Positions 1-64,000 of a DNA stretch of 64,000 nucleotides are shown here, one piece after another (the first letter of the stretch is position 1; every line of letters starts with the position of its first letter). The notes under the pieces are model-generated. The model had not been told where the DNA came from. It was given only the letters and a program-made list of their open reading frames with translations, and ran no database searches. The position numbers were made by a program, and so were the translations under genes. The stretch is taken from NCBI GenBank assembly GCA_005778355.1, contig SXON01000017.1, forward strand, positions 36,511 through 100,510, read 5' to 3'. This stretch comes from Pseudomonadota bacterium (GTDB lineage Bacteria > Myxococcota_A > UBA796 > SXON01).

Positions 1-2
1 GC

Positions 3-257
3 CTCGAGGTGCACGCCAAGGTCGCGCTGCCGACCTGGGGCCTGCTCTTGCCGCAGATTGACGACGACACGCTTCGACACGACGCCGAACGCATGGTCGA
101 GCGCCTGTCGCGACCGGACGAGCCCGCCGAGGCGCTGGCCCGCGATGAGTACGACCTCACGCAGCGGCTCATCACGCACGGCGGCTGGGCGCGCAGCGAG
201 CTTCGGTGGATCCAGGAGCTCAACAGCGGCGCCGCCATGGTCATCCAGGGCGGGTAG
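3..257 (+). CDS. C-terminal part of a hypothetical protein (truncated by window start)
   Basis: Open frame from window edge to TAG at 255-257; no family recognised. Confidence 0.5.
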   Translation, partial: LEVHAKVALPTWGLLLPQIDDDTLRHDAERMVERLSRPDEPAEALARDEYDLTQRLITHGGWARSELRWIQELNSGAAMVIQGG

Positions 258-284
258 GCGGCGCGCCCGGTTACTTTCGCGCCG

Positions 285-1361
285 ATGCCTCGCCCGAACG
301 CCCTGCTCCTCACCCCGCTGTTCTTCCCTCTCGTCGCGAGCGCGGGCCCGAACGATACCGTCCCCGAGGGGCGGCGTGTCGCCATCGTGGTGGGTGTTTC
401 CAGCTACGAGAAGCTCCCGGCCGAGCTCCAACTCGACACCCCGCGCACCGAGGCGGCTCGGGTGGCGGCCGCGCTCGAACAGTCCGCCGGCTACAACGAG
501 GTGCGCCTCCTCACCGATGCCAGCGCCACCACCGGCAACATCCAGGCCATCCTCGCCGAGGAGTTGAGCAAGGAGGTGGTCTGGAAAGACCTCTTCCTTT
601 TCTACTTCGTGGGCCACGGGGTGGGCGGCGACTTTGGCGACCCGCGGCTATTGCTCTACGACAGCGATCCGGAGGCGCTCGACACCACCTCGCTCTCGGT
701 GAAGGAGTTCGCCGCCAGCTTGCAGAAGTGGGTGCCAGCCAGCCGCTACGTCGTCGTGACCGACGCGGCGCACGACCAGTCGCTGAACGGCTTGGTCTTG
801 CTGGGGCCAACGGGCAACGACTGGCCGGTGATCGGCCAGCAGAGCTTCATGATCTCCTCGGCCGCGCCCCGGCAGCCGGTGCAGGCGGGCGTGTTTTCCA
901 AGGCCTTCATCGAGGGTCTGAGCGGCCAGGCCGACACCAACGGCGATGGCGTGATCACCGGGTCGGAGATCAACACCTTCTTGATCCTCGCGGTGCCCAA
1001 CGCCACGGGCGGTCGCCAGCTGCCCACGGTGCAGTCGAAGTACGACCCCGGCATCGAGATCGTCGATCGGCGCAAGCCCGACGGAACCGTCGTGGAAGGC
1101 CCCAAGTTGCCCACGCACCGGGTCGACAAGGCGAAGTTCATCTTGCCCACGGGCACAAGCCAGAAGGTGCAGTGCCGCGAAACCCAGCCCTACGCCTGCG
1201 ACCCCTCCTGCTACCTCTTCGACGTGCTCGCCGGCCCCTGCGCCGTCTGGGCCACGGTCGACGGCAAGGAGTACGAGGCCACGGTCGACGTGCTCACGCG
1301 CGGGCTCTACCGCTGCGAACTGAAAGACCAGTCGCTGGGGTGCGTGTCGCCGGCGCCGTGA
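285..1361 (+). CDS. Caspase-like (peptidase C14 fold) protein, probably catalytically inactive
   Basis: RRVAIVVGVSSYEKL..LQLDTPRTEAARVAAALE..LFLFYFVGHGVGGDFG, then VVVTDAAHDQS where DACHSG is expected, then ADTNGDGVITGSEINTF; N-terminal signal-like segment. Confidence 0.75.
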   Translation: MPRPNALLLTPLFFPLVASAGPNDTVPEGRRVAIVVGVSSYEKLPAELQLDTPRTEAARVAAALEQSAGYNEVRLLTDASATTGNIQAILAEELSKEVVWKDLFLFYFVGHGVGGDFGDPRLLLYDSDPEALDTTSLSVKEFAASLQKWVPASRYVVVTDAAHDQSLNGLVLLGPTGNDWPVIGQQSFMISSAAPRQPVQAGVFSKAFIEGLSGQADTNGDGVITGSEINTFLILAVPNATGGRQLPTVQSKYDPGIEIVDRRKPDGTVVEGPKLPTHRVDKAKFILPTGTSQKVQCRETQPYACDPSCYLFDVLAGPCAVWATVDGKEYEATVDVLTRGLYRCELKDQSLGCVSPAP

Positions 1362-1370
1362 TCCGCCAGC

Positions 1371-3965
1371 TCAGTGCTCGTCGCCCGCGTCTTGCAGGTA
1401 GCCTAGGCTCTCCAGTGCCTCCTGGTCGCCCTCCGACACCGCGCCGCCGTCTTCGGGCGCGTCGATAGTGTCGGCGGGGATGAGCAGCCAGCCCTTCTCC
1501 ACGGCGTAGCGGGTGTCGCCCGCGAGCCGCCCCGGGTTGAGCATCGTCGCCTTGTTGCCCGACATCGCCAGCGTGCCATCGGGGCAAGGGTCCGCCTCGC
1601 ACTGGATCCACCAGGTGTGGGTGCGCGCCTTTTCGCCCGGCTCGAAGGTGACCGTCCTGCGGTCGGCCGAGACGGTCACCTTGCCGATCTCGTCGGGCAG
1701 CACGGCAGGTCGTTCACCCCACTCGAGGTTGGCACGGATGCGCGCGTTCCACTCGGGGTCGAGGATGCCGGCGGCGGCGATCGGTGCCTTGAAGCTCGCC
1801 GTGGTGGTGGCGACAGTGGTCGGGATGCGCAGGCGCCAGCCTGGGCGCACCGGCACGCCGGTGGCCTGCGCCAGGAGTGCCCGGTAGTTCCCCACCAGCG
1901 ACTTGTCGCCCATGCGGAACAAGTCGTTCGTCTCGCCGGGATCGGCGGCAAGGTCGAAGAACTCCTCGCGGCCGCTGGCGGTGTGGAGGATGTACTTCTT
2001 GTCCTTGTAGACAACCCCCCAGCGATCACGTTCGTAGCGCATGTGGCCGAGGGGGAGGGGACGCTCCACGAGGGTCGTCTCGAGGGCGGCCTGCTCGGCC
2101 GCGCGCGCCTTGTCGACGAAGGGGCGCAACGAGACGCCATCGGTGGCGGGACGCTTCTCAGCAGCGACACCGAGGAAGTCGAGGACGGTCGGGACGATGT
2201 CGGCGAGCGACACCGGCTGGTTCACGCGGGGCGCGCCCTGCCAGCCCCCCGGGGGACGGATCGCGAGCTCGGTGTGAACCAGTTCCTGGAAGAGGCTGTG
2301 GTTGTGCTCGAAGCCGTCGTGGTCCCAGAATTCCTCGCCGTGGTCGGTGTGCAGGACGGTGAGCGTTTGCCCGGGCATCTTCTCGACGGCAGCGAGGAGT
2401 CGCGACACCTGGTGTGCGGTGTAGGCCACCTCCGCGTCGTAGGCGTTGCGGATCCACGCCTTGCCCGAGTCGCCGAGGTCGCGCTCTTTCATGATGCTGA
2501 GGATCTGCCAGCGATTGAACTTCGCGGGGATGCCCTTGGGACGTTCCTTGCCCTCCTGGAACTTGTCGGCCCAGCCGAGGGGCGCGTTGTAGAAGGTGTG
2601 CGGATCCATGAAGTGCACGAACAAGAAGGCGTCTTCCTCGTCGTGGTTGCTCAACCAGGCGAGTGCGCGTGCCACCTCGTCCTCGCCGCGGGCGCCATTC
2701 TCGTACTCCCAGTGATCCATGCCGCGCGCGAAGCCAAAGCGCGGAACGAGGTGCACGTTGCCGACGACACCGGCGGTGGCCAGCCCCTCGGCGTGGAGGA
2801 TCTCGGCCAGCCGAGGCGAGCTCTTGGCTTCCTTGGGCCAGCGCCCGGTGAAGGCGGTGAGGAACGAGGGCTTGGTGCGCGGCGCGGGCGAGTAGGCGCG
2901 GTCGAACTGCACCGACTGCGCCAGCCACTGGTCGAGCTCGGGCGACGTGGCTCGCCCGTAGCCGTTCGCGCCCAGCGCGTCCCAGCGAAGGGTATCGATG
3001 CCCACCACGAGCACCCGCCGCGGCGGTGCGGCCTCGGCATCGACGAGCGTCGGCGTCGTCACTGCCACGTAGTCGCCGGTCGCATCGCCGCCGGGGTCGG
3101 TGCTGAAGCGAAGGGTGGCGGTGCCCGGGGCCTCCCGATCCAGCCTGACCTCGACGGTCTGGTGCTTCTTGGCGGGATCAACCTTGCCTGACCAGACTTC
3201 CTTGCCGTCCACCTCGATCTTGAGCGTGGCGCCGTTTCCGCTCGCCTGTCCGGACACGGGGTCTTCGAGGAGGCCATGGCCGAACTTCAGGATGCCCTTC
3301 CTGGGCAACTCGACGCTGAAGGAGGCCGAGGCGGGCGCGGGGAGGTATAGCGCCGGTCGCGACACGCGCTCGACCATGTAGGTGGTGGTCGCGAACTCAG
3401 CGGGGGTCAGGCCCGAGCCAGCGAGCTGGCGTTTCTTCACGGCGGCGGCGAGCTCGTCGACGACTACCTCGGCCGGCTTGGCGAGTTCGTTCGGGTTGCT
3501 CTTGCTGACAATCACCACGCTGCCGTGGTCGACGTACCATGTCGCGACGCTAGCCTTCGTGGGCGCGGAGATCGTGGTGTTGAAGGGCACGTCCTCCCCT
3601 TCGACCACGAGCCGCGCGCCCATGGGGGCGTAGTTCGGCCGCGGCATGTTGGTGGCGAAGGGAAGGGGGGTGGTGTAGGCACGCATGCCGCCTCGGCGTT
3701 CACCCTCGTCTTTCCAGGGGCCTGAGAGGATGAATCGCCCGGCCTCGGCAGCGGCCGCGCCATCGGGGAAGATGAGGTTGGCTTCCGCGAGGTGATCGAG
3801 GGCCCGCCAACGGAGGGCCTTGTTCCCGGTCTCGAGGTTCACCGTCGGCTGCTCGGCGGGCGCTGTCGGCGGCGTGACCACCTCAGGCACCAGCGAGGCG
3901 GCTACTTGCGAGGGCGTTTCTTCTTTCTGGCCGCAGGCCAGCATCGCGAGGACGAGCGTGATCAT
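1371..3965 (-). CDS. Sulfatase/alkaline-phosphatase-superfamily lipoprotein
   Basis: Lipobox LVLAMLAC; RRVLVVGIDTLRWDALGANGYGRATSPELDQWLA..SPAPRTKPSFLTAFTGRWP..LHTDHGEEFWDHDGFEHNHSLFQELVHTELAIRPPG. Confidence 0.88.
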   Translation of the reverse strand: MITLVLAMLACGQKEETPSQVAASLVPEVVTPPTAPAEQPTVNLETGNKALRWRALDHLAEANLIFPDGAAAAEAGRFILSGPWKDEGERRGGMRAYTTPLPFATNMPRPNYAPMGARLVVEGEDVPFNTTISAPTKASVATWYVDHGSVVIVSKSNPNELAKPAEVVVDELAAAVKKRQLAGSGLTPAEFATTTYMVERVSRPALYLPAPASASFSVELPRKGILKFGHGLLEDPVSGQASGNGATLKIEVDGKEVWSGKVDPAKKHQTVEVRLDREAPGTATLRFSTDPGGDATGDYVAVTTPTLVDAEAAPPRRVLVVGIDTLRWDALGANGYGRATSPELDQWLAQSVQFDRAYSPAPRTKPSFLTAFTGRWPKEAKSSPRLAEILHAEGLATAGVVGNVHLVPRFGFARGMDHWEYENGARGEDEVARALAWLSNHDEEDAFLFVHFMDPHTFYNAPLGWADKFQEGKERPKGIPAKFNRWQILSIMKERDLGDSGKAWIRNAYDAEVAYTAHQVSRLLAAVEKMPGQTLTVLHTDHGEEFWDHDGFEHNHSLFQELVHTELAIRPPGGWQGAPRVNQPVSLADIVPTVLDFLGVAAEKRPATDGVSLRPFVDKARAAEQAALETTLVERPLPLGHMRYERDRWGVVYKDKKYILHTASGREEFFDLAADPGETNDLFRMGDKSLVGNYRALLAQATGVPVRPGWRLRIPTTVATTTASFKAPIAAAGILDPEWNARIRANLEWGERPAVLPDEIGKVTVSADRRTVTFEPGEKARTHTWWIQCEADPCPDGTLAMSGNKATMLNPGRLAGDTRYAVEKGWLLIPADTIDAPEDGGAVSEGDQEALESLGYLQDAGDEH

Positions 3966-6481: not shown

Positions 6482-6962
6482 GTGGGCGCTGCACTTTATC
6501 GCCTGTCCCGCGCAGCAGCTTGGGATCGAGCTTCCCGAGGGGGGTGCCAAGGGCATTTCCCACGAGGATCTACGTCGCGACGTGCGTCTCCTCGTGGAAA
6601 CGACAGACCCCACGCGGGCCTTCCTGGAGCGCATGGTGCAGATGAAGTTCGAACCCGCGATCGACATGCCGGCCTGCGTGCAACGCGGCAGCGGCTCGGA
6701 CTACCGAATCGGCGTGTCGCGACCCGCCAACGCCATGGAGGCCACCGCCCCCGCGGCCGTCATCTCGATCGCCAAGGCCTGGGACCTCGGAACGCCGCCG
6801 CCCCGGCGACTGCTCGTCTGCATGGGCACGGAGTACGCGGCCGACACTTGGGTTGCCCCGCTGGTGGACGATCCCACCCTCGACCCGGCCACCGTGAACT
6901 ACACCGCGCTCGCCGAGAAGGTGCGCGTGCTGTACGCCGAGATCGACGGCGCCGCTCGCTAG
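6480..6962 (+). CDS. Hypothetical lipoprotein, faintly M28-peptidase-like
   Basis: MWALHFIAC lipobox-like; RPANAMEATAPAAVISIAKAWDLGTPPPRRLLVCMG. Confidence 0.6.
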   Translation: MWALHFIACPAQQLGIELPEGGAKGISHEDLRRDVRLLVETTDPTRAFLERMVQMKFEPAIDMPACVQRGSGSDYRIGVSRPANAMEATAPAAVISIAKAWDLGTPPPRRLLVCMGTEYAADTWVAPLVDDPTLDPATVNYTALAEKVRVLYAEIDGAAR

Positions 6963-7273: not shown

Positions 7274-8773
7274 CTACTTCGAAAGCGGGAGCCAGATGGA
7301 GAAGCGGCTCCCGGCGCCCTCCACGGACTCGAGTGAAACGCGACCCCTGTGGGCCGACACGATGCCCGCCACGATGGCGAGCCCGAGACCGCTCCCCTCG
7401 GTTCGCCGTGAGAGCAGGTTGTTCGAACGATAGAACTTGTCGAAGACGCGGCGTTGCTCCACGAGCGAGATGCCAGGGCCATCGTCCTCCACGGCGAAGT
7501 TGACGCCGCCAGACTCGGCGCGGGCGAGCAGGCGGATCTTCACCTTTTCGCCTCCGTACTTCCGGGCGTTGCCCAGCAGGTTGATCAGCGCCTCCGCCAC
7601 CGCGTCGGCATCGGCCAGCACCCGGGGAAGGTTGTCGGGCACGTTGACCACGAGCCGATCGTCGCCATCGAGGTCGTGGGCGCGGAAGGCGTTGACCGCG
7701 CGCGCGACGATGTCGCAGGGTCGCTGCGGGGTCATCTCGTAGATGCGGCGCCCCGCCTCCATGCGAGCCCACGTGAGCACGCGTTCGATCTTCTTGCTGA
7801 GGCGCTCGGTCTCCGCCGCGATCACGTCGAGACACTCCTGCACGCGCTCGGGGTCCTTCACTCGGCCGGACTGGAGTGTCTCGACGAACATGCGGATGGA
7901 GGTGAGGGGCGTTCGGAGCTCATGCGAGACATTGCTGACGAAGTCGGTCTGGAGTCGCGACAAGCGTACTTGCTGAGCGATGGCGCGTCCCATGATGATG
8001 ACGCCCACTACCGTAGCCGCAAAGAGTAGGATCATCGTCCATCGGAGCGCGCTGTCCGCCGGCGCCTCGCGGGCCGCGGGCGGGTCGACCTCCACGCGCC
8101 AGTGGGCGAAGGGCGGCGCGAGCGGGCGCATCACGAAGGGCTCGTCTTCGAGGAGCTGCAGGGCCAAGGCGCGGCGTAGCGCGTCGAAGCTCACCGGCTC
8201 GCCCGCCGGGTCGGCGGCGAGGGCGCGCAGCCGGTAACTCGCACCCTCCGTGGAGTACTTCCGGCCGACGATCTCGGGGATCACCACCGCATCGATCGCG
8301 GCGGCATCAATGCGATAGGCCACCACTAGGCCCTCCCGAAGTCGCGACACCGCGAGTGCGGAGTCGTCTCCCCCGGAGGCCGTGACGAAGCTCACCGGGG
8401 CGCGCTCGGAGAGCACCAGGGCAGCGGCCGCGGCATCCGGCGGCGCGTCTGGGTCGTCGAGGGTCCAGACCTTAGAGACAAGGCGGCTCTTTTCGCGGTA
8501 GCCCGCGGCGGTTTCGCCGAGCGCCTCGGCCGGCACCGCCGAGAGCGCTCGGCGCACGCGGTCGTCCTCCGCCGCCAACGCCGCCAGCACCTCGGCCTCG
8601 AGGTCGCGGGCCTGCAGGGCGTAGCGCTCGTGCAGGCGCCCTTCCTCGGCGTCGGCGCGGTCTTTGATGCCCGCGAGGCCGTAGGCGAGCAGCGCGACCG
8701 CCGGCGCCACCACCAGCACCACCATCGCCCAGAAGACCCGTCGCCGGGCCATCGACTCGCCGAGTGTGGGCAC
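7274..8773 (-). CDS. Sensor histidine kinase
   Basis: Two TM segments; VSNVSHELRTPLTSIRMFVETL H-box; VEDDGPGISLVEQRRVFDKFYRSN..GSGLGLAIV; start may be the internal ATG at 8752. Confidence 0.93.
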   Translation of the reverse strand: MPTLGESMARRRVFWAMVVLVVAPAVALLAYGLAGIKDRADAEEGRLHERYALQARDLEAEVLAALAAEDDRVRRALSAVPAEALGETAAGYREKSRLVSKVWTLDDPDAPPDAAAAALVLSERAPVSFVTASGGDDSALAVSRLREGLVVAYRIDAAAIDAVVIPEIVGRKYSTEGASYRLRALAADPAGEPVSFDALRRALALQLLEDEPFVMRPLAPPFAHWRVEVDPPAAREAPADSALRWTMILLFAATVVGVIIMGRAIAQQVRLSRLQTDFVSNVSHELRTPLTSIRMFVETLQSGRVKDPERVQECLDVIAAETERLSKKIERVLTWARMEAGRRIYEMTPQRPCDIVARAVNAFRAHDLDGDDRLVVNVPDNLPRVLADADAVAEALINLLGNARKYGGEKVKIRLLARAESGGVNFAVEDDGPGISLVEQRRVFDKFYRSNNLLSRRTEGSGLGLAIVAGIVSAHRGRVSLESVEGAGSRFSIWLPLSK

Positions 8774-8840: not shown

Positions 8841-11342
8841 ATGAACCTCAGCCGCGTGCTCAGCACCGAGATCCTCCCCGTCGTGGAGCGGCCCAGCCGC
8901 TACCTCGGCACCGAGCACAACGCCGTCCACAAACACGGCGCGCGGGTGCGCATGGCGCTCGCCTTTCCCGACCTCTACGACCTCGGACTCGGCAACCTCG
9001 GGCTCCACATTCTCTACGCCGTGCTCAACCGCATCGACGGCGTGTCGGCCGAGCGGGTGTACGCCCCGGCTCCCGACATGGAGCGCGAGCTGCGTTCTCG
9101 CGGGCTCAAGCTCTTCGGCGTGGAGAGTCGCGACGAGCTCTGCGACTTCGACGCCATCGGCTTCACGCTGCAGTCCGAGCTCACGTTCACCAACATCTTG
9201 AACATGATCGACCTCGCTGGGTTGCCGCTCCGCACGGTCAACCGGCACGAGGGGCCGATCGTGCTCGCCGGCGGTCCCGCCGTGTTCAACCCCGAGCCGC
9301 TCGCGCCCTTCATCGACGCCTTCGTCATCGGCGATGGAGAAGACGTGGTGACCGAGATCGCAAAGGTGCTCGCGGAGCATCGTGACCGGGGGGCCCGCTT
9401 GCTCGCGTTGTCGCGACTCGAGGGTCTCTACGTGCCCGCGCTCTACCCGATGGACACGTTGTCCGACGGCCGCATCGTCCCGCCGCTCGACGCGCCGAAG
9501 ATCCGCAAGCGCACCGCGCGCGCCCTCGACGGGAACAACTTCCCCGTTGATTACATCGTGCCTTTCACCGAGCAGGTGCACGACCGCGTGTCGCTCGAGG
9601 TGCTCCGCGGTTGCACACAGGGCTGCCGCTTCTGCCAGGCCGGCAGGACCACGCGCCCGGTGCGGGAGCGCACCGTCGACGCCGTGGAAGACCTGATGAC
9701 GCGCACCCTGGCCGCTACCGGCTACGAGGAGGTGTCGCTGGTGTCGCTGTCCACCTGCGATCACAGCCGCGTCCGCTCGCTCGTGGAGCGCACCTCGACC
9801 CTGGCGAAGTCACAGCACGTGGCGCTGTCGCTCCCATCTCTCCGGCTCGACAGCTTCTCCGTGGAGCTGGCTGACATGGCCTCGTCCACCCGCCGCACCG
9901 GGCTCACCTTCGCCCCCGAGGCGGCCTCGCCGCGCCTACGCGCCGTCATCAACAAGTGGATCCCCGACGACGACCTCATCGAGATGGCCACCGCTGCCTA
10001 CGAGAAGGGCTGGGAGCACGTCAAGACCTACTTCATGATCGGCCTGCCCACCGAGCGTGAGGAAGACATCGTCGCGATCGCGGACTTGTGCGCACGCACG
10101 CTGGCCGCCGGGAAAAAGAAAAACCCGCGGGCCATGGTGAACACCGGGGTGAGCACCTTCGTGCCCAAGCCGTTCACGCCCTTCCAGTGGGCGCGACAGA
10201 TCGGGATCGAAGAAACTGAAGCAAAACAGGCGCTTCTGTTGCAGAACATCAAGCGTCACAAGAACATCAAATTCGGGCGCCACAAGCCCCATGAGACTTT
10301 CCTCGAGGGGCTCGTGTCTCGTGCCGACCGGCGCGCGGGCGACCTCATCGAGGCAGCCTGGCGCCACGGGGCTCGCTTCGACGCCTGGGGCGAGCACCTC
10401 GACTTCGGTGCCTGGCAGCGGGCCATCGAGGAGGTGGCCTACGACTGCGACGACGCGCTGCGCGAGCGGGCTCTGGACGAGCGCCTGCCCTGGGATCACA
10501 TCGACATCCACATCCCCAAGGCCTGGTTTGCCGCCGACTACGAGCGGGCGATGCAGTTGCAGCACGCGCCCGACTGCCGCGCGAAGAAGTGCCACGATTG
10601 TGGTGTGATCGACGTGGAGCGGGCGCTTTGTGCGCACATGCTCCGCAACAGCATCGAGGGGCGCAAGGCGGAGAAGGCGTGGACCAGGACGCCGTTGACG
10701 CCGGCCGCCGAGCCGTTGCCGGTGCAGCGCGTGCGTTTCCGCGTGGGACGCGAGAGCGACGCACGTTTCCTCGGCCACCTGGAATGGCAGAACGCCTGGC
10801 AGCGCGCCTTGCGCCGTGCGCGGGCACCGCTGGCCTACTCGCTGGGCTTCCATCCTCACCCACGGGTGGACTTCTCCTCGGCGTTGCCGAGCGGGGAGGA
10901 ATCGCGTGCCGAGTTCATGGACGCGAGGCTGGTGCGGCGCGTCGACGTGGCGGCGCTGGTGAGCGCCCTGCGTGCCACGGTGCCGAGCGGCTTCCTGGTG
11001 CTGGGCGGCGAGGAGGTGCCGCTCGACGCGGCCGCCACGATGGGTGAGGTGAGGGGATGGCGCTACGAGCTTGTCCCCGGCTTGCCCATCGAGGTCGCTC
11101 GGGACGCGGCTGAACGAATTGATGTCGCGACGTCGTTGCCGGTGACTCGGCGTTCGAAGTCGGGGCCGATCCAGGTCGACGTGCGCCCGATGGTCGACCA
11201 CATCGCGGTGCGCGAGGATGGGGTGGTGGAGCTCGATCTCGGCATGGTCAATGGAAAGCCAGGAAAAGCTAGGGAGATCGTGGAATTGATGCAGCTACCG
11301 CCCACGACACGCGTGGTGCGCACCGAGGTGCGATTTCGCTGA
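8841..11342 (+). CDS. Fused TIGR03960-type radical SAM protein and TIGR03936-type (DUF2344) domain
   Basis: LEVLRGCTQGCRFCQAGRTTRPVRERTVD CxxxCxxC; C-terminal RVRFRVGRESDARFLGHLEWQNAWQRALRRARAPLAYSLGFHPHPRVDFSSALP. Confidence 0.93.
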   Translation: MNLSRVLSTEILPVVERPSRYLGTEHNAVHKHGARVRMALAFPDLYDLGLGNLGLHILYAVLNRIDGVSAERVYAPAPDMERELRSRGLKLFGVESRDELCDFDAIGFTLQSELTFTNILNMIDLAGLPLRTVNRHEGPIVLAGGPAVFNPEPLAPFIDAFVIGDGEDVVTEIAKVLAEHRDRGARLLALSRLEGLYVPALYPMDTLSDGRIVPPLDAPKIRKRTARALDGNNFPVDYIVPFTEQVHDRVSLEVLRGCTQGCRFCQAGRTTRPVRERTVDAVEDLMTRTLAATGYEEVSLVSLSTCDHSRVRSLVERTSTLAKSQHVALSLPSLRLDSFSVELADMASSTRRTGLTFAPEAASPRLRAVINKWIPDDDLIEMATAAYEKGWEHVKTYFMIGLPTEREEDIVAIADLCARTLAAGKKKNPRAMVNTGVSTFVPKPFTPFQWARQIGIEETEAKQALLLQNIKRHKNIKFGRHKPHETFLEGLVSRADRRAGDLIEAAWRHGARFDAWGEHLDFGAWQRAIEEVAYDCDDALRERALDERLPWDHIDIHIPKAWFAADYERAMQLQHAPDCRAKKCHDCGVIDVERALCAHMLRNSIEGRKAEKAWTRTPLTPAAEPLPVQRVRFRVGRESDARFLGHLEWQNAWQRALRRARAPLAYSLGFHPHPRVDFSSALPSGEESRAEFMDARLVRRVDVAALVSALRATVPSGFLVLGGEEVPLDAAATMGEVRGWRYELVPGLPIEVARDAAERIDVATSLPVTRRSKSGPIQVDVRPMVDHIAVREDGVVELDLGMVNGKPGKAREIVELMQLPPTTRVVRTEVRFR

Positions 11343-11365: not shown

Positions 11366-12511
11366 ATGTTCGTGCTGAGCGAAGAGCAGAAGGCCCTCGC
11401 CGAGGCGGCCCGCGCCGCTGCGGTGGCGCACGTGGCCCCCACGGCCCGGGATGACGACGAGAAAGAGCTGTTTCGCAAAGAGCTCTTCCAGAAGCTCGGC
11501 GAGGCCGGCCTCTGCGGCGTGCCCACCCCCGAGGCCTGGGGAGGGCTCGGGCTCGGCTACCTCGACTACGCCGTCGTGCTCGAGGAGATCGCCAAGGTGA
11601 GCGCGTCGTATGCGGTCACCGTGGCCGTCAACGGCCTGCCGCAGGTCATCCTCGCCCAGTTCGGCACCGACGCCCAGCGCGCCCAGTGGTTGCCACGCCT
11701 GGCGGCAGGCGAGGCCCTCGGCGCCTTCGCGCTGTCTGAGCCCTCCTCCGGCTCCGACGCGGCCTCGCTCCGCACCACCGCCGTGCGCGACGGCGAGCAC
11801 TACGTGCTCAACGGCACCAAGTTCTGGATTACCCACGGCGGCTACGCCGACGTGTACGTGGTGATGGCCCGCACCGGGGGGCCCGGTCCCAAGGGCATCG
11901 GCGCTTTCCTGGTGTCGAGCGACACGCCCGGCCTTTCCTTCGGCAAGAAGGAAGAAAAGATGGGGATGCGGGCTTCTCCCACGGTCGAGGTGATCCTGGA
12001 GAGCGCGCGCGTGCACGCGAGCAACCTCATCGGCGGCGAGTCGGAGGGTTTCCGCTGTGCCATGAGCGCGCTCGACAGCGGGCGCATCACGATCGGCGCC
12101 ACGAGCGTGGGCCTCGCGCAGGCCGCGCTCGACGCGGCGGGCGCCTATGCCTGCCAGCGCAAGCAGTTCGACACGCAGATCATCGATTTCCAGGGCGTGG
12201 GCTTCATGCTGGCTGACATGGCCTGTCGCGTGGAAACCGCGCGCCTGCTCGTTCACAAGGCGGCGTGGCTGCGCGACCAGAAGTTGCCCTACTCTCACGT
12301 TGCGGCCATGGCGAAATGTGTCGCGACCGACGCCGCGATGTCGGTGACCACCGACGCGGTGCAGGTGTTCGGCGGCTACGGCTACACGCGCGAGTACCCG
12401 GTCGAGCGCTACATGAGGGACGCCAAGGTGATGCAGATCGTCGAGGGCACCAACCAGGTGCAGCGCGTCGTGATCGCACGTCACCTGAAGCGTCACTATG
12501 GCGAGGCGTAG
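11366..12511 (+). CDS. Acyl-CoA dehydrogenase
   Basis: AFALSEPSSGSDAASLRTTA; AVQVFGGYGYTREYPVERYMRDAKVMQIVEGTNQVQRVVIARHL. Confidence 0.96.
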   Translation: MFVLSEEQKALAEAARAAAVAHVAPTARDDDEKELFRKELFQKLGEAGLCGVPTPEAWGGLGLGYLDYAVVLEEIAKVSASYAVTVAVNGLPQVILAQFGTDAQRAQWLPRLAAGEALGAFALSEPSSGSDAASLRTTAVRDGEHYVLNGTKFWITHGGYADVYVVMARTGGPGPKGIGAFLVSSDTPGLSFGKKEEKMGMRASPTVEVILESARVHASNLIGGESEGFRCAMSALDSGRITIGATSVGLAQAALDAAGAYACQRKQFDTQIIDFQGVGFMLADMACRVETARLLVHKAAWLRDQKLPYSHVAAMAKCVATDAAMSVTTDAVQVFGGYGYTREYPVERYMRDAKVMQIVEGTNQVQRVVIARHLKRHYGEA

Positions 12512-12568: not shown

Positions 12569-14470
12569 ATGAAGGTCTGCTCGCTCTGCAAGAATAGCTA
12601 CGAGGACTGGGTCGAGTTCTGTTTTCAGGACGGGCAACCCCTCCTGGCGGGTGCCGCCTCGCCGGCTGGTGCCACGAGCGGGTCCGCGCCGCCGCCGGTT
12701 TCACTGCCGGTGGCACCTCCGCCCGCGGTCAGCACCGTCCCGAGCAGTGTTGCGAGCGCGCCGTCCCTTGATCCCGGTGCGTCGGCAGACTGGGACGCCT
12801 TCGATGCCCCCGAGCCGACGCTCATCCGGATGCAGCGGCTCGCTGCGCAGCAGGGCCCCGGCGGCGCCCCCGCCGTGCTCCCCAAGGTGATGCAGCCGGC
12901 GCTCGGCGGACTGGTGGCACCGGCGCCCCCGTCTCGCCCGGGGTTCGGGTCGGGAGGCGCACCGAGCGGCGTGGCATCTGGCGCCGACACGCCCGACTTT
13001 GCCGCGCCCGGGTTGCCGCGTGGTGGACTCGGCGCCCGCCCGCCGAGCCCCGTGGACGCACCGGAATCTTTGCCCGCGCCACGCGCCGTACCGCCGCCCG
13101 TCCATGGGATCACGGCGGTCCCGCTCTCGGAACTCGAGGCCGAACCGGCGAGCACCGCCGAGGTCTTGAAGGCAGAGGCGCGCCAGGCCGAGGAGGCGCG
13201 TGGCGAGTCGGGCAGCCTGGCTCCGGTCGTGCCGCTGTCGCGACCTGCCGTAGCCAAGTCCGAGTCGAAGTCCGAGTCTGCTGGGCCCGAGTCCGACGGG
13301 CTGGGCGGCGACTTCTTCAACGAGAAGCCGCGCGAAGACGAGGACCAGAAGGCCACTGTGCCGATGTACGCGGCGCAAGCGGAAGATCGTGAGCGCGAGG
13401 TGCGGCCGCAACCCACCCGGTCGTCGAGCGGGCGCCCGCAGCCCGCGAGCAAGGACCGCGACGACGGTGGCATGGCGGCCCCGGCCGCAGCTGGAATCGG
13501 ACTCGCGATGATCGGCGCGATCGGCGCTGGCGTGCTGGTATTGGTGCTCGGCGGCGTCTTGTGGATGAAGATGAGCGCCGACAAGGCCGACGTGGTCGAC
13601 ACCACCCCGCCCCCGGCCGAGGTCAAGCCGCCGCCGAAGCTGGAACCGGCACCGCCGGTCGAACCGCCGCCCGTCGAGCCGTCGCCCGTCGAGCCGTCGC
13701 CCGGGGCGGTCACCGATCCCGGCGAAGCCGGGGACGACGGTAGCGACGCAGGCCTCACCGCGAATCCGAGCGCGACGTCCCCGACGCCCGGCACCGCCAC
13801 GCCTGGGGGCGCGGCGCCCAAGCCCGGGGCAGCCACCACGCCCGGAGCCACCACGACCCCGGGCACCAAACCGGCCACGACTCCCGCCACCGCGGGTACG
13901 GCCGCCAGCAGCACGGCGCCGAAGTCGGGCACCACGCCTCCCTCGGGCACCGGGGCGGCCTCGCCCTGGGGGACCGTGACGCCGTCGACGGCGCCAGCCG
14001 CGTCCACCACGTCCGACAATCCCTGGGGCACGGCGTCGCAAGTGTCCACGGGTACCCTGCGGATCACCAGCGACCCGACAGGCGCCACTGTCTTCGTCGA
14101 CGACAAGCCCTACGGCACCACGCCGTCGTCCGTCGACCTTCCCTACGGCAAGCACAAGGTGCGGCTCAGCCTCGCCGGGCATCGTACCGAGTCGAGCGAC
14201 GTCAACCTCAACGTGGCGTCGATGTCGGTGCCCTTCCGGCTCACGCCTGAAGAGATCACCGGCATCATCAACGTGTTCGGCCCCACCGGCGCATCGGTGT
14301 GGATCGACGACCACGACATGGGCCCGCTGCCGGTGAGCGTGCAGGTTCGCGAGGGCGTTCACGGGCTGAAGCTCATCCAGGCCGACGGCAAGTCCTGCTC
14401 GTCGAGCCGCGACGTGCGCTTCACCAGCGGTGGACGGCCGCTGGCGATCAACCTACAGCCCTGCGGCTAG
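12569..14470 (+). CDS. Zinc-ribbon-like, single-TM, PEGA-domain protein with Pro/Thr-rich linker
   Basis: MKVCSLCKNSYEDWVEFCFQDGQPL; one TM (AAGIGLAMIGAIGAGVLVLVLGGVLWM); TGTLRITSDPTGATVFVDDKPYGTTPSSVDLPYGKHKVRLSLAGH. Confidence 0.85.
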   Translation: MKVCSLCKNSYEDWVEFCFQDGQPLLAGAASPAGATSGSAPPPVSLPVAPPPAVSTVPSSVASAPSLDPGASADWDAFDAPEPTLIRMQRLAAQQGPGGAPAVLPKVMQPALGGLVAPAPPSRPGFGSGGAPSGVASGADTPDFAAPGLPRGGLGARPPSPVDAPESLPAPRAVPPPVHGITAVPLSELEAEPASTAEVLKAEARQAEEARGESGSLAPVVPLSRPAVAKSESKSESAGPESDGLGGDFFNEKPREDEDQKATVPMYAAQAEDREREVRPQPTRSSSGRPQPASKDRDDGGMAAPAAAGIGLAMIGAIGAGVLVLVLGGVLWMKMSADKADVVDTTPPPAEVKPPPKLEPAPPVEPPPVEPSPVEPSPGAVTDPGEAGDDGSDAGLTANPSATSPTPGTATPGGAAPKPGAATTPGATTTPGTKPATTPATAGTAASSTAPKSGTTPPSGTGAASPWGTVTPSTAPAASTTSDNPWGTASQVSTGTLRITSDPTGATVFVDDKPYGTTPSSVDLPYGKHKVRLSLAGHRTESSDVNLNVASMSVPFRLTPEEITGIINVFGPTGASVWIDDHDMGPLPVSVQVREGVHGLKLIQADGKSCSSSRDVRFTSGGRPLAINLQPCG

Positions 14471-15381
14471 TCGGTCACGGCGTTGGCCAGCACCACGCTG
14501 GCGTAGCTGCCGACGATGGCGGCCGCGACGAGCTCGGGCCGATGCGCAGCCGCCGTGCCGGCCGCGTAGGTCATCGCGGTGGCCGCCGGGACCGCGATGG
14601 CCACGGCGAGGAGGCCGCGGACAGGCTTCTTGTCGGCGAAGGCGGGGTAGCCGGGGAGGGGCACGTAGACGCGCGCGTCGACCAGAGGCTCGGACAGGGC
14701 CGGGAACGACGCTGTGGCGACCGGGGCCATGGGGGCCGACAGGTATATGGGGTCGGGCACGATGCCGAGGAGCGCGTGCGCCGCCGCCTCGATCTCCGCC
14801 TCGTCGCCGAAGCCGCCGCCGGGAAGGGCACTGGCGCCCGGGGCCTGGAGCACCGAGGCGCGCCGGCTCGCGGCCGGGGCGTCGACCCAGCCGCTCGCGA
14901 GGGCCAGTTCCACCTGTCCTGAGGTGCTGCCGATGGCGCCCACCACGAAGATGTCGATGTCGAGCGCGCTCACCGCGACGCGGGCGCAGGCGAGGTCGAG
15001 CCCGCAGCTCATGGCGGCGCGGGCCTCGGGACCGTCGGGCACGACGACCTCGACCCTGGGGACCCGAGCCATCGCGGCGCGGACATGCGCGGTCGCGATC
15101 TCCGCGTCGAGGCCAAAGGACGGCGAGGGCTCGACCGTCGACCACACTGGCGCCACGAGCACCCGCAGGTCGCGCTGGCCACTCCACTCGACCGGCGTCG
15201 CGACGCGCATGGTGTTGACATCGGTGAAGGGAATGCGCATACGCCCCTGCGGCGTGCGCAGTTCCACCCCCCGGTCGGTCGTGTCGATGACCTCGCCCAC
15301 GACAGTGCGGCCGTCGAGCAGCACGACGTGGCGGAACTCCCCGGCGCGCGCCGCCGAGACGACCAGCAGAGCGACGAGCAT
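14467..15381 (-). CDS. Hypothetical secreted protein
   Basis: MLVALLVVSAARAGEFRHVVLLDGRTVVGEVIDTTDRGVELRTPQGRMRIPFTDVNTMRV; start refined from ORF track. Confidence 0.7.
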   Translation of the reverse strand: MLVALLVVSAARAGEFRHVVLLDGRTVVGEVIDTTDRGVELRTPQGRMRIPFTDVNTMRVATPVEWSGQRDLRVLVAPVWSTVEPSPSFGLDAEIATAHVRAAMARVPRVEVVVPDGPEARAAMSCGLDLACARVAVSALDIDIFVVGAIGSTSGQVELALASGWVDAPAASRRASVLQAPGASALPGGGFGDEAEIEAAAHALLGIVPDPIYLSAPMAPVATASFPALSEPLVDARVYVPLPGYPAFADKKPVRGLLAVAIAVPAATAMTYAAGTAAAHRPELVAAAIVGSYASVVLANAVTD

Positions 15382-42895: not shown

Positions 42896-42904
42896 CTTTG
42901 GGGC

Positions 42905-43140: not shown

Positions 43141-43192
43141 TCGATCAGGTCGCGCGGGACAGCCGGGTGACGGCGGATTCCCTGCCCTACGA

Positions 43193-49938: not shown

Positions 49939-51950
<2,012 letters not shown>

Positions 51951-51990: not shown

Positions 51991-53688
51991 GTGATTCGCG
52001 CGTGGTGGGACCGAGCCCTCGTGGTCGTCGCGAGCGTGCTCGGGTTGCTCCCCTTCGCCCGGGGGCTCGCCGAGGGCGAGATCCCCGGCCAGGCCAGCGT
52101 CCCCCTCGACGGCGCGCACACCCTGTTCGTCTACGAGTACGTGCGCCAGGCGCTGCTCGGCAACGTCGACCTGCTCCACGCCGACGCGATGTGGTACCCG
52201 CTCGGGCGCCCGTTCTTGCTCGGCATCCAGAACGTCATCGACGCGGTGATCGCCGCGCCATTCCTCGGCGCGCTCGGCCTCCAGCACGGCATGGCGGCCT
52301 TCGTGGCGGTGGTGCTGGTGAGCAACGGCCTCGCTGCCGGCTGGATGGGCGAGCGCATCGGCGGACGCGGTGTCGCCGGGCCCCTCGCGGCGCTGGTGGT
52401 GGCCTTCGCGCCCTACGCGTGGTGCGAGACGCAGATGGGCCGGGTGACCCAGGCCGTGCTTGCGCCGTTGTGCCTCGCCCTCGGCTTCGCGTGGACCGCC
52501 ACGCGGCCCGACGAGTCGCGACTTCGTCCCGCCTTCTTCTCGGGCTTGTGGCTGGCGGTCGCGGCGCTGGAGTACTGGTTCTACGGCTTTTTTGGTTGCA
52601 TTGTCGTTGGCGGGCTCTACCTCGGCGCGATGCTGGGCCACGGGCGCCTCCACACGGTGCGCGCCCTCGCCGTCACCGCGCTGGTCCCTGGGCTCATCGC
52701 CGCCCCCTTCGCCCTGTACGTCGCGAGCACCTGGTCCGAGATGCCCGGCGCGAACATGGAGTCGCCCGTCCCCAACGCCACCCGGCTCTTCGCAGGGTTT
52801 CCGGGTCGCGACGCGCTCCGTACCGCGATGTACGTGCCGCAACTGCTCTTCGGCGTGGCGCTCCTCGGCCTGGCCACCCGTGAGCGCGCCCGACTCGGCG
52901 GTATCGTGCTCGCGATGCTTTTCCTCGTGGGCGTGGCGGTGGGTGAGCGCGTCACCATCGGCCCCATCGAGGGGGTTCACACGCCTCTGGCGCTCTTGCG
53001 TGAGCTCCCGGGGTTCCACCGCTTCTGGTGGCCCCATCGGGCGCTCGCAGGGGTGGTGGTGGGCGCGGCAGCCTGCGCGGCGGCCTGCGCGTCTGCGGGG
53101 AGGCGCCCTCGCGCTCTTGCCATGCTCGGCGTCGGGCTCAGCGTGGTGCAGGCGCTCCTGACCCCCGGGGAACTCACGAGCTGGAAGGCGCCCCGGCGCC
53201 CGATGTGGGCCGACGCGCTGCCCCCCGGGCCGGTGCTCCTCCTCCCGATGCTCGACCCCGACGCGGGCAAGCAGTTCCTCAGCCAGTGGGCGCAGCACCA
53301 TCGCCCGATGGTGAACGGCATGTCGATGTGGGACGACTTCCTGTGGCCTGCCGACTTCAAACAATGGGCGAGACAACAGCCGTTCATCGACGCGCTCCTC
53401 GGGATCGAGCGCTCGCGCCCCCACGGTCGCCGCGCGGCGCAGCCCAACGTTCTCGCCTCGCCCAACGGCGGTGCCAGTGCCCCCACGGTGAAGCTCGACG
53501 CCGCCATCCGGAGGGCCGAGAAGCTCGACAGCGACGACCTCCAAGACCTCGCGAACCTCGGCGTGGTGGGCATCGTCGCCCACCTGAGCCGCACGCCCAC
53601 CGAGGCGGTCGACTTGTTGACCCGCCTGGCCGGGCCCTCCCAGGGCAACGACAGCTTCGCCTGGTGGCCCCTCCCCCCGCCGCGGTGA
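51991..53688 (+). CDS. Polytopic membrane protein (glycosyltransferase/YfhO-like architecture)
   Basis: Many hydrophobic TM segments, 565 aa; GTG start. Confidence 0.75.
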   Translation: MIRAWWDRALVVVASVLGLLPFARGLAEGEIPGQASVPLDGAHTLFVYEYVRQALLGNVDLLHADAMWYPLGRPFLLGIQNVIDAVIAAPFLGALGLQHGMAAFVAVVLVSNGLAAGWMGERIGGRGVAGPLAALVVAFAPYAWCETQMGRVTQAVLAPLCLALGFAWTATRPDESRLRPAFFSGLWLAVAALEYWFYGFFGCIVVGGLYLGAMLGHGRLHTVRALAVTALVPGLIAAPFALYVASTWSEMPGANMESPVPNATRLFAGFPGRDALRTAMYVPQLLFGVALLGLATRERARLGGIVLAMLFLVGVAVGERVTIGPIEGVHTPLALLRELPGFHRFWWPHRALAGVVVGAAACAAACASAGRRPRALAMLGVGLSVVQALLTPGELTSWKAPRRPMWADALPPGPVLLLPMLDPDAGKQFLSQWAQHHRPMVNGMSMWDDFLWPADFKQWARQQPFIDALLGIERSRPHGRRAAQPNVLASPNGGASAPTVKLDAAIRRAEKLDSDDLQDLANLGVVGIVAHLSRTPTEAVDLLTRLAGPSQGNDSFAWWPLPPPR

Positions 53689-55793: not shown

Positions 55794-56654
55794 GTGCTCG
55801 TGCTCCTGTTCTTGTTGGCCTGTCCCAAGCCTGCCGAGCCCCCGGCGATGGGCAATGCCTCGATCTGGAGCGAACCGAGCCCGAGCTGCCCCCGGCGTGG
55901 TGACGATCCGCCGGCGTGCCCCGCGGGGAGCGCGCTGGGATCGTCTCCTGAGCTGCCCCTGGAGTGGGGGGTCATGGCCGCGGGCAACCGCCTGTGGGGC
56001 GACCGCCTCGCCTGCGCAGACGGCAGCATCGCCGCGTACCAGCGCCTGGGCAACGTGGGCGCGGCGCCCGTCGAGTCGAGCTCGCCGCCCTCCGGGGCAC
56101 CGCGATTCGGTCCCGACGTGGTCGACCGGTGGTCCGTGGACTGTGGCGACGGCCCCACGACGCTCTACACCAACCTGTACCGCTGCGGCGAGATCTGCCT
56201 GCCGGGCGGCCTGCGCATCGTCCCCGGTGCCACGGCCAAGGAGATGGAGGCGATGAGCGCGGCGGCCGAGGCCAGGGACATGGTGGCCATGCACGCCGCA
56301 GGCGAGCGACTCGTCGGCGTCGGCCGCGACTTCGAGGTCACCTGGCTGGTGGCCGCATCGGTTGCCGAGAGCGCCGGCGACTGGTCGAATGCGGTCGCCT
56401 ACTGGCAAGGCGCCATCGGCATCCTCGACACCGCGAGCAGCCGGGCGTCGCTGGCTGAAGCGCTCGCACGATCGGGTCGCGACGTGGAGGCGCGGCTCGA
56501 GCTCAACACCTTGCTGGCTCGGTATGGCGACAGCCCGCTCCGGCCCCAGCTCGTTTGCACCCAGTCGCTGCTCGAGACCGACCGGCAAAGACAGATGGCG
56601 CTCGCCGAGGAAGCTTGCACTGGGGGTTGGCCGCGTTGCTGTGGTTCGCCTTGA
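55794..56654 (+). CDS. Hypothetical lipoprotein
   Basis: VLVLLFLLACPKPAEPP lipobox, GTG start refined; Cys-rich middle; TPR-like C-terminal half. Confidence 0.68.
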   Translation: MLVLLFLLACPKPAEPPAMGNASIWSEPSPSCPRRGDDPPACPAGSALGSSPELPLEWGVMAAGNRLWGDRLACADGSIAAYQRLGNVGAAPVESSSPPSGAPRFGPDVVDRWSVDCGDGPTTLYTNLYRCGEICLPGGLRIVPGATAKEMEAMSAAAEARDMVAMHAAGERLVGVGRDFEVTWLVAASVAESAGDWSNAVAYWQGAIGILDTASSRASLAEALARSGRDVEARLELNTLLARYGDSPLRPQLVCTQSLLETDRQRQMALAEEACTGGWPRCCGSP

Positions 56655-60541: not shown

Positions 60542-60741
60542 GCGGACGGCCACCTGCCGCGGGTTCGGCTCTCGGGTCACGTCGAGAGCACGCTGTCGCG
60601 ACACTGGAGCGCGCTCGACTTCGGTGCTACCGGGGTCGCTGTCCCACGCTTCCGGGCCAAGGTGGCTCAGGTCGCGACACGGTGCCTCATGGCACGCGAC
60701 CGACCGTCTTGACTTGCGCGGGGCGAAGGTGAGCGTGCGCT

Positions 60742-60817
60742 CGCGGCGGGACCTCGCGTCGGGTGGTACGTCGCTCGCATGAGTGGCAGAAACCCGCGAC
60801 GCTGGTGTCGCGACATG
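60742..60817. repeat. 76-bp direct repeat, copy A
   Basis: 71/76 identical to 60878-60953; ends in CGCGAC-GCTGGT-GTCGCG hairpin. Confidence 0.93.
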
Positions 60818-60877
60818 TGTCTACTTTGCGTTCCGCGACGCGTGGTTGCCTACACCGCTCGAAGGCCACCCCGCGCG

Positions 60878-60953
60878 CGCGGCGGGACCTCGCGTCGGGT
60901 GGTACGTCGCTCGCACGAGCGCCAGGAACCCGCGACGCTCGTGTCGCGACATG
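60878..60953. repeat. 76-bp direct repeat, copy B
   Basis: 71/76 identical to 60742-60817. Confidence 0.93.
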
Positions 60954-61817: not shown

Positions 61818-62174
61818 CTACACCACGACATCGACGTACATTCCCGGCTCCGCCGTGATGATCGAGCTCGCGACGATGGCCTCGGCCACGAGGGCCGCGG
61901 CGGACGTGGCGTCGGTCGCGACCCCAGTGGACTCGACCACCGGGCTCTCGACGGGGGGCGCCGGCGCCGTGGTGGTGGCCGTCTCGTCAATGGCTGCCGT
62001 GGCCTCAGGCGAGAAGCTCACCTCCACGGCGGGGGTGCTGGCCGCAGCCGCGCGCCAGTGGGCGCGCGACGGGGAGCGACCCTCGGCCTTGGCGGCGTGA
62101 ACCTCAGCGGCTCGGGCCTGGCCGCGCACGGCGGGGCCGCCCTGGTGTCCGTTACTCGAGTCAACTGGGCGCAT
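61818..62174 (-). CDS. Hypothetical protein
   Basis: 118 aa; Ala/Val/Thr-rich; weak support. Confidence 0.4.
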   Translation of the reverse strand: MRPVDSSNGHQGGPAVRGQARAAEVHAAKAEGRSPSRAHWRAAAASTPAVEVSFSPEATAAIDETATTTAPAPPVESPVVESTGVATDATSAAALVAEAIVASSIITAEPGMYVDVVV

Positions 62175-62852: not shown

Positions 62853-63009
62853 GCCACGCCAGCCCGACGCCTGCAACCTCGCGCCCGGCCAACTCGGGGG
62901 CTTGTCGAGTCGGCCCGAATCGCCCGCCGTGGTGCTGAATCCCGTCGTGGCGTCGCGGGCACCGTGGGTTCAGACCCCGGATTCGTCGCCAGCGGGCTAG
63001 CGTCACCCC

Positions 63010-63657
63010 GTGTGGCCGTGGACCCGCAAGCCAGCTGTCCCGTCGCCTGACGAGGCGTGCTCGTTCTGCAATCGAACGCGGGCTGACGTGCGTGTCCTGG
63101 TAGCGGGCGACACCGCGTCGAACTGTGACGCCTGCGCCGCGTTCTCGGTCGGACAGCTCGACTACCCGAATGACGAGCTCGCGCAACCGGGAATGCGCGT
63201 GCTCAGGGCGTCGCTGAAGGAGATCCTGGCACGCATGGGTCCCGACGTGCCGCACCGGGTTTCAGGCCCCGTGCTCGGGGCTGCGGCGGCGCTGGCCGCC
63301 TCGTTGACGGAGCGTCACAACCTCTCGATCGAGGCGATGCGCCTTCGCAATGGGCCAGCGGCGCTCTTTCTTCTCGACGTCCCCGGGGGCCACGCCCACG
63401 ATGGTGCTCAACGCCGCCTCGTACTGGATCGGGCAGGGCGATGCTGCAAAAGCAGCCGAACGGGTCCGCGCAATCGACATCACGGCGCTCCCGGTCGTCG
63501 ACCAGGCCCATCGCCACCTCAACCTGGCGTCGGCGCTCCTTTCCTGCGGCGGCGACGAGGCCGGGATCGAGGCGCTGCTGGTCGCTGCGGAGGCCGCACT
63601 CGACGAGGCCGCGAGCGACCCCTACGCGACCGCCTGGCGCGTGTGCGTGCACAATAG
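63010..63657 (+). CDS. ClpX-type C4 zinc-finger-like N-terminal domain protein (3' part of the ORF probably out of frame)
   Basis: ACSFCNRTRADVRVLVAGDTASNCDACAAF; GTG start; coding character appears lost after about 63385. Confidence 0.6.
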   Translation: MWPWTRKPAVPSPDEACSFCNRTRADVRVLVAGDTASNCDACAAFSVGQLDYPNDELAQPGMRVLRASLKEILARMGPDVPHRVSGPVLGAAAALAASLTERHNLSIEAMRLRNGPAALFLLDVPGGHAHDGAQRRLVLDRAGRCCKSSRTGPRNRHHGAPGRRPGPSPPQPGVGAPFLRRRRGRDRGAAGRCGGRTRRGRERPLRDRLARVRAQ

Positions 63658-63889
63658 CCGCGGCGACCTCGCGCTCCGCCGAGGCGACGCCGCAGGCGCC
63701 CTCCAGCACTTCCAGGCCGCGCTCGCGGGCGGGGCCAGCTACGACGCGGCCACCCACCGGCGGGTGGGCGACGCGATGCACGCGATGCAAGACGACGACG
63801 GCGCGAGGCAGGCGTGGACGTCCGCCTTGGCGGCGGCTCACCCCGACACCCCGCTCGCCGCACAACTACGAGCCCGCCTGGGATCTTGA
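63350..63889 (+). CDS. TPR-like protein, possibly continuation of the zinc-finger ORF after a +1 frame change
   Basis: VLNAASYWIGQGDAAKAAERVRAIDITALPVVDQAHRHLNLASALLSCGGDEAGIEALL..GDLALRRGDAAGALQHFQAALA. Confidence 0.65.
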   Translation: MGQRRSFFSTSPGATPTMVLNAASYWIGQGDAAKAAERVRAIDITALPVVDQAHRHLNLASALLSCGGDEAGIEALLVAAEAALDEAASDPYATAWRVCVHNSRGDLALRRGDAAGALQHFQAALAGGASYDAATHRRVGDAMHAMQDDDGARQAWTSALAAAHPDTPLAAQLRARLGS

Positions 63890-63923
63890 CGCCCACGGCA
63901 CCGGCGTATACATGGGCGGCGAT

Positions 63924-64000
63924 TCCCGCTTAGCTCAGCTGGTTAGAGCGACGGACTGTTAATCCGTAGGTCCTGTGTTCAAGTCACAGAGCGGGAGCCA
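63924..64000 (+). tRNA. tRNA-Asn (anticodon GTT)
   Basis: 77 nt cloverleaf: TCCCGCT/AGCGGGA acceptor, GCTC/GAGC D stem, ACGGA-CTGTTAA-TCCGT anticodon arm, CTGTG-TTCAAGT-CACAG T arm, encoded CCA. Confidence 0.97.

What the first reader, a model, noticed from the sequence alone, without database searches (positions are those of the whole stretch)
1..64000. HIP1-like over-represented palindromic octamer GTCGCGAC
Seen: by eye I count about 38 GTCGCGAC sites across the window (e.g. 108, 6574, 9127, 42923, 60595, 60671, 60807, 60943), in coding and intergenic DNA. At about 68% GC a composition-only estimate gives about 2-3. The same-composition sibling GTCGCGAG/CTCGCGAC seems much rarer per strand. 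Sites inside genes often need codons unusual for high GC, e.g. 9126-9134 AGT CGC GAC (Ser-Arg-Asp) and 27553-27567 TTG TCG CGA CTA CTC (LSRLL), which suggests selection on the DNA word itself. Established: cyanobacterial HIP1 (GCGATCGC) is a comparable highly iterated palindrome associated with methylation. Inference: this lineage has its own iterated palindrome, possibly a methyltransferase or nucleoid-protein target.
Basis: partly seen in the sequence, partly recalled or inferred. Interest (0 to 1): 0.72.

Follow-up and report, generated by a model that had tools for sequence, protein, structure and literature searches.

The report
Iterated palindrome GTCGCGAC, conserved site-by-site
One uncultured lake bacterium and a few relatives carry the 8-letter palindrome GTCGCGAC thousands of times at positions that evolution has kept, much like the unexplained HIP1 word of cyanobacteria, and the three richest genomes also share a DNA-methylase gene beside a likely methylation-damage repair gene.

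Summary
The window has exactly 38 GTCGCGAC (third-order Markov expectation 7.6). The genome has 3,410 (516/Mb), the highest density among 379 genomes of the phylum. In coding DNA it is 7.5-fold above a synonymous-codon shuffle, in all three frames, about equally dense between genes, and not carried by repeats. The signal is the exact octamer. Sites are kept in place between sister species: 30/39 conserved against 34% for same-composition octamers. Silent positions inside sites are nearly frozen. Within the genus the word is patchy: strong in one three-species clade, moderate in G006 and in G007+G009, no excess in five species. So it behaves like a cyanobacterial HIP, with a different word and host group. 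The three richest genomes alone in the genus share a syntenic cytosine-5 methyltransferase followed by a MIG-like (T:G mismatch) HhH-GPD glycosylase. This is the best candidate for a methylation-linked mechanism, but the trio is one clade, the recognition word is untested, and the moderate genomes lack both genes. The HIP-like word and its constraint are shown; the methylase link is inferred.

The parts
107..114 (.). GTCGCGAC site
   Evidence: not conserved in G010/G008
2399..2406 (.). GTCGCGAC site
   Evidence: conserved in G010 and G008
3356..3363 (.). GTCGCGAC site
   Evidence: conserved in G010 and G008
3541..3548 (.). GTCGCGAC site
   Evidence: conserved in G010 and G008
6574..6581 (.). 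GTCGCGAC site
   Evidence: changed in G008
6716..6723 (.). GTCGCGAC site
   Evidence: conserved in G008
7954..7961 (.). GTCGCGAC site
   Evidence: conserved in G010 and G008
8341..8348 (.). GTCGCGAC site
   Evidence: conserved in G010 and G008
9127..9134 (.). GTCGCGAC site (AGT CGC GAC in frame)
   Evidence: T2 to C in both relatives
9410..9417 (.). GTCGCGAC site
   Evidence: conserved in G010
11124..11131 (.). GTCGCGAC site
   Evidence: conserved in G010
12320..12327 (.). GTCGCGAC site
   Evidence: conserved in G010
13237..13244 (.). GTCGCGAC site
15197..15204 (.). GTCGCGAC site
   Evidence: conserved in G008
16765..16772 (.). GTCGCGAC site
   Evidence: conserved in G008
25928..25935 (.). GTCGCGAC site
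27492..27499 (.). GTCGCGAC site
27560..27567 (.). GTCGCGAC site (TTG TCG CGA CTA)
27913..27920 (.). GTCGCGAC site
31217..31224 (.). GTCGCGAC site
32079..32086 (.). GTCGCGAC site
34569..34576 (.). GTCGCGAC site
36339..36346 (.). GTCGCGAC site
36489..36496 (.). GTCGCGAC site
38888..38895 (.). GTCGCGAC site
   Evidence: conserved in G010 and G008
40999..41006 (.). GTCGCGAC site
   Evidence: conserved in G010 and G008
42923..42930 (.). GTCGCGAC site (inside a dispersed intergenic repeat)
43352..43359 (.). GTCGCGAC site
   Evidence: conserved in G010
47808..47815 (.). GTCGCGAC site
   Evidence: conserved in G010 and G008
50149..50156 (.). GTCGCGAC site
   Evidence: conserved in G010 and G008
52515..52522 (.). 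GTCGCGAC site
   Evidence: conserved in G010 and G008
52805..52812 (.). GTCGCGAC site
   Evidence: G6 to A in both relatives
56476..56483 (.). GTCGCGAC site
   Evidence: conserved in G008
60595..60602 (.). GTCGCGAC site
60671..60678 (.). GTCGCGAC site
60807..60814 (.). GTCGCGAC site, in a 94-nt direct repeat spaced 136
60943..60950 (.). GTCGCGAC site, in the second copy of that repeat
61915..61922 (.). GTCGCGAC site

Best explanation
GTCGCGAC is a HIP-class word: a short palindrome multiplied throughout the genome and held in place by a constraint acting on the DNA word itself, not on protein or RNA. Shown: genome-wide excess, exactness, independence of reading frame, position conservation, and restriction to part of one genus. 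Inferred: the word is methylated. In the densest clade the best candidate writer is the 570-604 aa cytosine-5 methyltransferase 'A', and the glycosylase gene downstream removes the T from T:G mispairs left by deamination of 5-methylcytosine, so the methylated word does not decay. Since T2/A7, which no cytosine repair protects, are conserved too, something must also favour the whole word: either selection on methylated sites as marks (for example strand discrimination in mismatch repair, as Elhai proposed for HIP1) or biased repair or conversion towards it. My confidence by step: HIP-class word about 0.9; methylation-linked about 0.6; A as the cognate enzyme about 0.4. The score below is for the statement as a whole.
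For: Word: 3,410 sites in the genome; highest density of 379 genomes of the phylum; 443 vs 59.5 by codon shuffle in the trio, all frames; one-mismatch variants near or below Markov expectation. Conservation: 30/39 (G000-G010) and 17/25 (G000-G008) vs about 0.33 for same-composition octamers, p 4e-8 and 2e-4; per-position identity 0.91-0.99 inside vs about 0.79 in flanks; third position of TCG 51/51 in sites vs 0.69 elsewhere, CGA 0.84 vs 0.53 (both directions pooled). Genes: methyltransferase A syntenic in the three densest genomes and, of 379 genomes, only there plus G021. Downstream glycosylase: best solved relative 1kea, described as a possible G-T mismatch repair enzyme; shares F22, R25, Y120 and NF at 140-141 with it and lacks MutY Q182; close copy only in the trio within the genus. 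Its best-scoring plasmid relative overlaps the end of a DNA cytosine methyltransferase gene in Thermus. Precedent: HIP words go with cognate methyltransferases in cyanobacteria (PMC4390886).
Against: G006, G007 and G009 are 3.7-4.9-fold enriched without methyltransferase A or the MIG-like gene; no PF00145, PF01555 or PF02086 cluster fits the enriched/unenriched split. The trio is a single clade, so the co-occurrence is one evolutionary event; it also carries trio-specific methyltransferases B and C. The relative of A in G021 has no enrichment of the word, but it has no glycosylase beside it and its specificity may differ. No methylation data. The glycosylase has S and W where MIG has A50 and L187 (PMC2714593).
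Confidence: 0.5

Rival explanations
1. A non-enzymatic DNA-binding protein (nucleoid, segregation or replication factor) common to the six enriched species binds GTCGCGAC, and selection keeps sites for it; the methyltransferase is coincidental.
For: Six species in three separate places of the genus tree are enriched and no surveyed methyltransferase family fits all six. Flank shows only a weak T/A preference at -1/+1.
Against: Recognition is all-or-none over 8 bp, unlike most regulator or nucleoid-protein sites. Gaps are close to random (CV about 1.1) and density is similar in genes and between them, so no positional role is visible.
Confidence: 0.25
2. Relic: an ancestral factor enriched the word across the genus; it was lost in some lines (sites decaying in G006, G007/G009, gone elsewhere) and kept in the trio.
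For: Patchy distribution on the tree; in G007+G009 the one-step variant GTCGCGAT is somewhat raised (27 vs 12.5) and is the state of both non-conserved reverse sites.
Against: Moderate genomes are still 4-fold enriched; G007-G009 conservation 4/8 vs 0.27 is too few to decide. GTCGCGAT is also raised in unenriched genomes (1.6-2.2-fold).
Confidence: 0.12
3. Pure mutational bias or gene-conversion by-product: repair linked to the methylated word creates and restores it, with no benefit to the cell.
For: Elhai proposes a methylation-directed repair ratchet for HIP (PMC4390886); word density is independent of coding; a T:G glycosylase-like gene sits beside methyltransferase A.
Against: Simple T:G repair protects only cytosines, yet T2/A7 are also conserved: 0.906 against about 0.4 for A or T at silent positions elsewhere.
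Confidence: 0.12
4. DNA uptake or recombination word (DUS- or chi-like).
For: Short word about once per 1.9 kb.
Against: Perfect palindrome, no strand preference; uptake machinery not examined.
Confidence: 0.05
5. Artefact of composition, codon usage, protein repeats or mobile repeats.
For: The genome is 69% G+C and has many Asp-rich repeat proteins that inflate other octamers.
Against: Codon-shuffle ratio 7.5, five congeners near 1.0; 3 of 267 sites share flanks.
Confidence: 0.01

Closest known systems
HIP1 (GCGATCGC) and alternate HIPs of cyanobacteria (Elhai 2015, PMC4390886)
   Same: Exact GC-rich palindrome, most over-represented octamer, about 500/Mb (HIP range about 500-2500/Mb), patchy among relatives.
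   Different: Different word, different host group; GCGATCGC is not enriched here (30 vs 36.3). The candidate methyltransferase is paired with a glycosylase; no cognate methyltransferase is proven and none found for the moderate species.
Mig.MthI, T:G mismatch glycosylase of Methanobacterium (structure 1kea; PMC2714593)
   Same: HhH-GPD single-domain enzyme of about 220 aa with Fe-S cysteines, shared F/R/Y/NF residues; next to a cytosine methyltransferase gene, as I recall for Mig.MthI itself.
   Different: Residues at the A50 and L187 positions are S and W; a distant relative by sequence; activity untested.
ScmA/VsrA of Caulobacter (PMC12907096)
   Same: Solitary cytosine methyltransferase with an octamer-length palindrome and thousands of sites, plus a repair protein for 5mC-to-T.
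   Different: YGCCGGCR is only slightly above random there and the repair protein is a Vsr endonuclease, unlinked; no Vsr was found in this genus.
Dcm/Vsr of E. coli
   Same: Methyltransferase gene followed by a T:G repair gene.
   Different: CCWGG, Vsr nuclease family; a much weaker effect on site frequency (from memory).

Membership tests
HIP (highly iterated palindrome) | Exact palindromic octamer that is the most over-represented 8-mer | tested here: met
HIP (highly iterated palindrome) | Density about 500-2500 per Mb | tested here: met
   516/Mb in this genome, lower edge of the range in PMC4390886; G010 457 and G008 444, just under it
HIP (highly iterated palindrome) | Occurs in all frames and in intergenic DNA, not repeat-borne | tested here: met
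HIP (highly iterated palindrome) | Cognate methyltransferase present in the genome | tested here: inconclusive
   Candidates A and B in the trio; specificity unknown; none found for G006/G007/G009
HIP1 proper (GCGATCGC, cyanobacteria) | Word GCGATCGC over-represented | tested here: not met
   30 vs 36.3 expected
Mig.MthI-type T:G glycosylase (for the linked gene) | HhH-GPD domain, no MutY C-terminal domain, best structural relative MIG | tested here: met
   PF00730 and HHH only, 220-236 aa; 1kea 3.7e-27
Mig.MthI-type T:G glycosylase (for the linked gene) | Thymine pocket residues A50 and L187 | tested here: inconclusive
   S and W, neither MIG nor MutY; the methyltransferase-linked Thermus homologue has A and W
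Mig.MthI-type T:G glycosylase (for the linked gene) | T:G excision activity | not testable with these tools
   Needs enzyme assay
MutY | V45/Q182 type pocket and score above the curated mutY cut-off | tested here: not met
   S/W; 129 bits vs 286.5; a separate MutY-type protein exists in the same genome
Vsr / VSP repair | Vsr domain PF03852 | tested here: not met
   0 of 11 genomes
Type II restriction-modification for GTCGCGAC | Restriction enzyme next to the methyltransferase and target word avoided | tested here: not met
   Neighbours of A are an E1 dehydrogenase, a CarboxypepD_reg protein, the glycosylase, HutD and FeoB; the word is enriched. Enzyme C does sit next to an Eco29kI-type nuclease

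The most novel reading that the evidence does not exclude
A cytosine methyltransferase and a MIG-like thymine glycosylase form a two-gene module that writes and protects an iterated palindrome, so a HIP has arisen outside cyanobacteria with a built-in repair partner that lets thousands of 5mC sites persist.
Probability: 0.3. Interest if true: 0.8.

Novelty: new variant of a known kind. Interest (0 to 1): 0.62.

Why it matters
The function of HIP1 is still unsettled. Here a HIP-like word is strong in some species and shows no excess in close relatives of one genus, with sister species near enough to see each site kept. That makes the competing ideas (methylation mark, repair ratchet, protein site) testable by gene-content and methylome comparison, and offers a concrete methyltransferase plus glycosylase pair to test.

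Tried and rejected
Repeat-borne origin. Codon or amino-acid origin; the other high octamers ACTGCGAC, ACAACGAC and TGTCGGTG sit in Asp-rich protein repeats or simple repeats. Regular spacing: gaps near random. Vsr. The roughly 300 aa PF00145 enzyme present across the genus does not distinguish enriched from unenriched species. Tyr at MutY position 120 was first taken as MIG-diagnostic and dropped, because the genus's own MutY has it too. My first clustering of methyltransferases misread minus-strand hits; it was redone. Literature searches found no report of GTCGCGAC as an iterated word among the results listed.

Full report
OBSERVATION. The window holds exactly 38 GTCGCGAC, against 7.6 from a third-order Markov model; the siblings GTCGCGAG and CTCGCGAC occur 9-10 times per strand. 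The genome (6.6 Mb, 252 contigs, 85% complete, 6% contaminated by the tool's figures) holds 3,410, one per 1.9 kb, against 194 for the reversed word. In about 400 kb sampled it is the most over-represented 8-mer (213 vs 54).

CODING CONTROL. Shuffling synonymous codons within genes gives 24.7 expected against 186 observed in G000, with excess in all three frames (40/13.4, 65/6.8, 81/4.5); the last frame needs the codons TCG and CGA. Density is 516/Mb in genes and 690/Mb between them. Pooled: trio 443/59.5, G007+G009 73/19.5, G006 24/5.1, five other congeners 12/12.1. Genes were called with a simple composition rule, so gene boundaries are approximate.

EXACTNESS. Against the Markov model, variants one base away lie near or below expectation in the trio, with a weak T/A preference at -1/+1 (2.2-fold). 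Against the codon shuffle some one-step variants are 2-3-fold up, as expected around an abundant word. Only 3 of 267 sites share flanks. Gaps are close to random.

CONSERVATION. Between G000 and G010 (alignments of at least 80% identity) 30 of 39 sites are kept, against 34% for same-composition octamers (p 4e-8); between G000 and G008 17 of 25 (p 2e-4). G010-G008 17/22 is not above its high baseline of 68%, and G007-G009 4/8 is undecided. Identity is 0.91-0.99 at positions inside sites and about 0.79 in flanks; silent third positions in sites are kept at 0.76-0.95 against 0.38-0.77 elsewhere (pairs counted in both directions). These are the strongest grounds for a constraint on the DNA word.

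DISTRIBUTION. Among 379 genomes of the phylum G000 is the densest, followed by G010 and G008. A two-gene tree places enriched species in three places: (G000,(G010,G008)), G006 (sister to unenriched G001) and (G007,G009). G008 and G010 match contigs deposited as 'Deltaproteobacteria bacterium' MAGs VGRE01 and VGRQ01 by contig number and length; the isolate names suggest lake depth samples. The phylum is not named by the tools; Myxococcota is my inference.

CANDIDATE MECHANISM. The trio alone in the genus has a 570-604 aa cytosine-5 methyltransferase (A), syntenic, followed by a 220-236 aa HhH-GPD glycosylase and HutD. The glycosylase is not MutY by curated cut-off or pocket residues; its best solved relative is the G-T mismatch enzyme 1kea. 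In Thermus plasmid NZ_AP025616 its homologue overlaps a DNA cytosine methyltransferase gene and has the same F, R, Y, NF and W residues. PADLOC matches it to a 'Type II nicking endonuclease' model. Two other trio-specific methyltransferases exist: B, with no recognised restriction enzyme among the neighbours I scanned, and C, next to an Eco29kI-type nuclease; CCGCGG, which I recall as the Eco29kI target, is depleted in the trio (738 vs 1,300).

LIMITS. The link between methyltransferase A and the word rests on one clade and on gene neighbourhood. G006, G007 and G009 are enriched without it. No methylation data exist. Draft, possibly contaminated assemblies mean that absence of a gene is weak evidence.

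VERDICT. A real, position-conserved HIP-class word in a new host group (new variant of a known kind). The mechanism is a ranked hypothesis, not a finding.

Noticed in passing
window 42900-43146: A dispersed intergenic repeat of about 245 bp with many copies in G000 and also in G010 and G008; it holds the site at 42923.
   Followed up: partly
window 60724-60817 and 60860-60953: Two 94-nt direct repeats spaced 136 bases, each ending in GTCGCGACATG.
   Followed up: no
trio coding DNA (G000, G010, G008 loci): GTCGAC is 1.8-fold above codon shuffle (1063 vs 600) and GGTCGACC 124 vs 55 in the trio; GTCGAC is near expectation in congeners. A possible second favoured word.
   Followed up: no
trio coding DNA; G001: Strong avoidance of CGTACG (70 vs 276) in the trio and of CACGTG in G001 (1 vs 34.8), suggesting restriction systems.
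   Followed up: no
L173:12276-13935: Eco29kI-type restriction enzyme next to methyltransferase C.
   Followed up: partly
L113, L114, L208, L214: A CcrM-like methyltransferase (for the G000 copy) and a D12-family methyltransferase lie a few kb apart on the same contig in G000 and in G010.
   Followed up: no
L168, L169, L170: The glycosylase is 100% identical between G008 and G010, while their methyltransferases A are 70% and 80% identical to that of G000, which hints at replacement of the methyltransferase alone.
   Followed up: no
trio coding DNA: ATGTATCA (both strands counted) occurs 22 times against 0.5 expected; unexplained.
   Followed up: no
window 19614-20276: Endonuclease III (nth) gene, above the curated cut-off.
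   Followed up: yes
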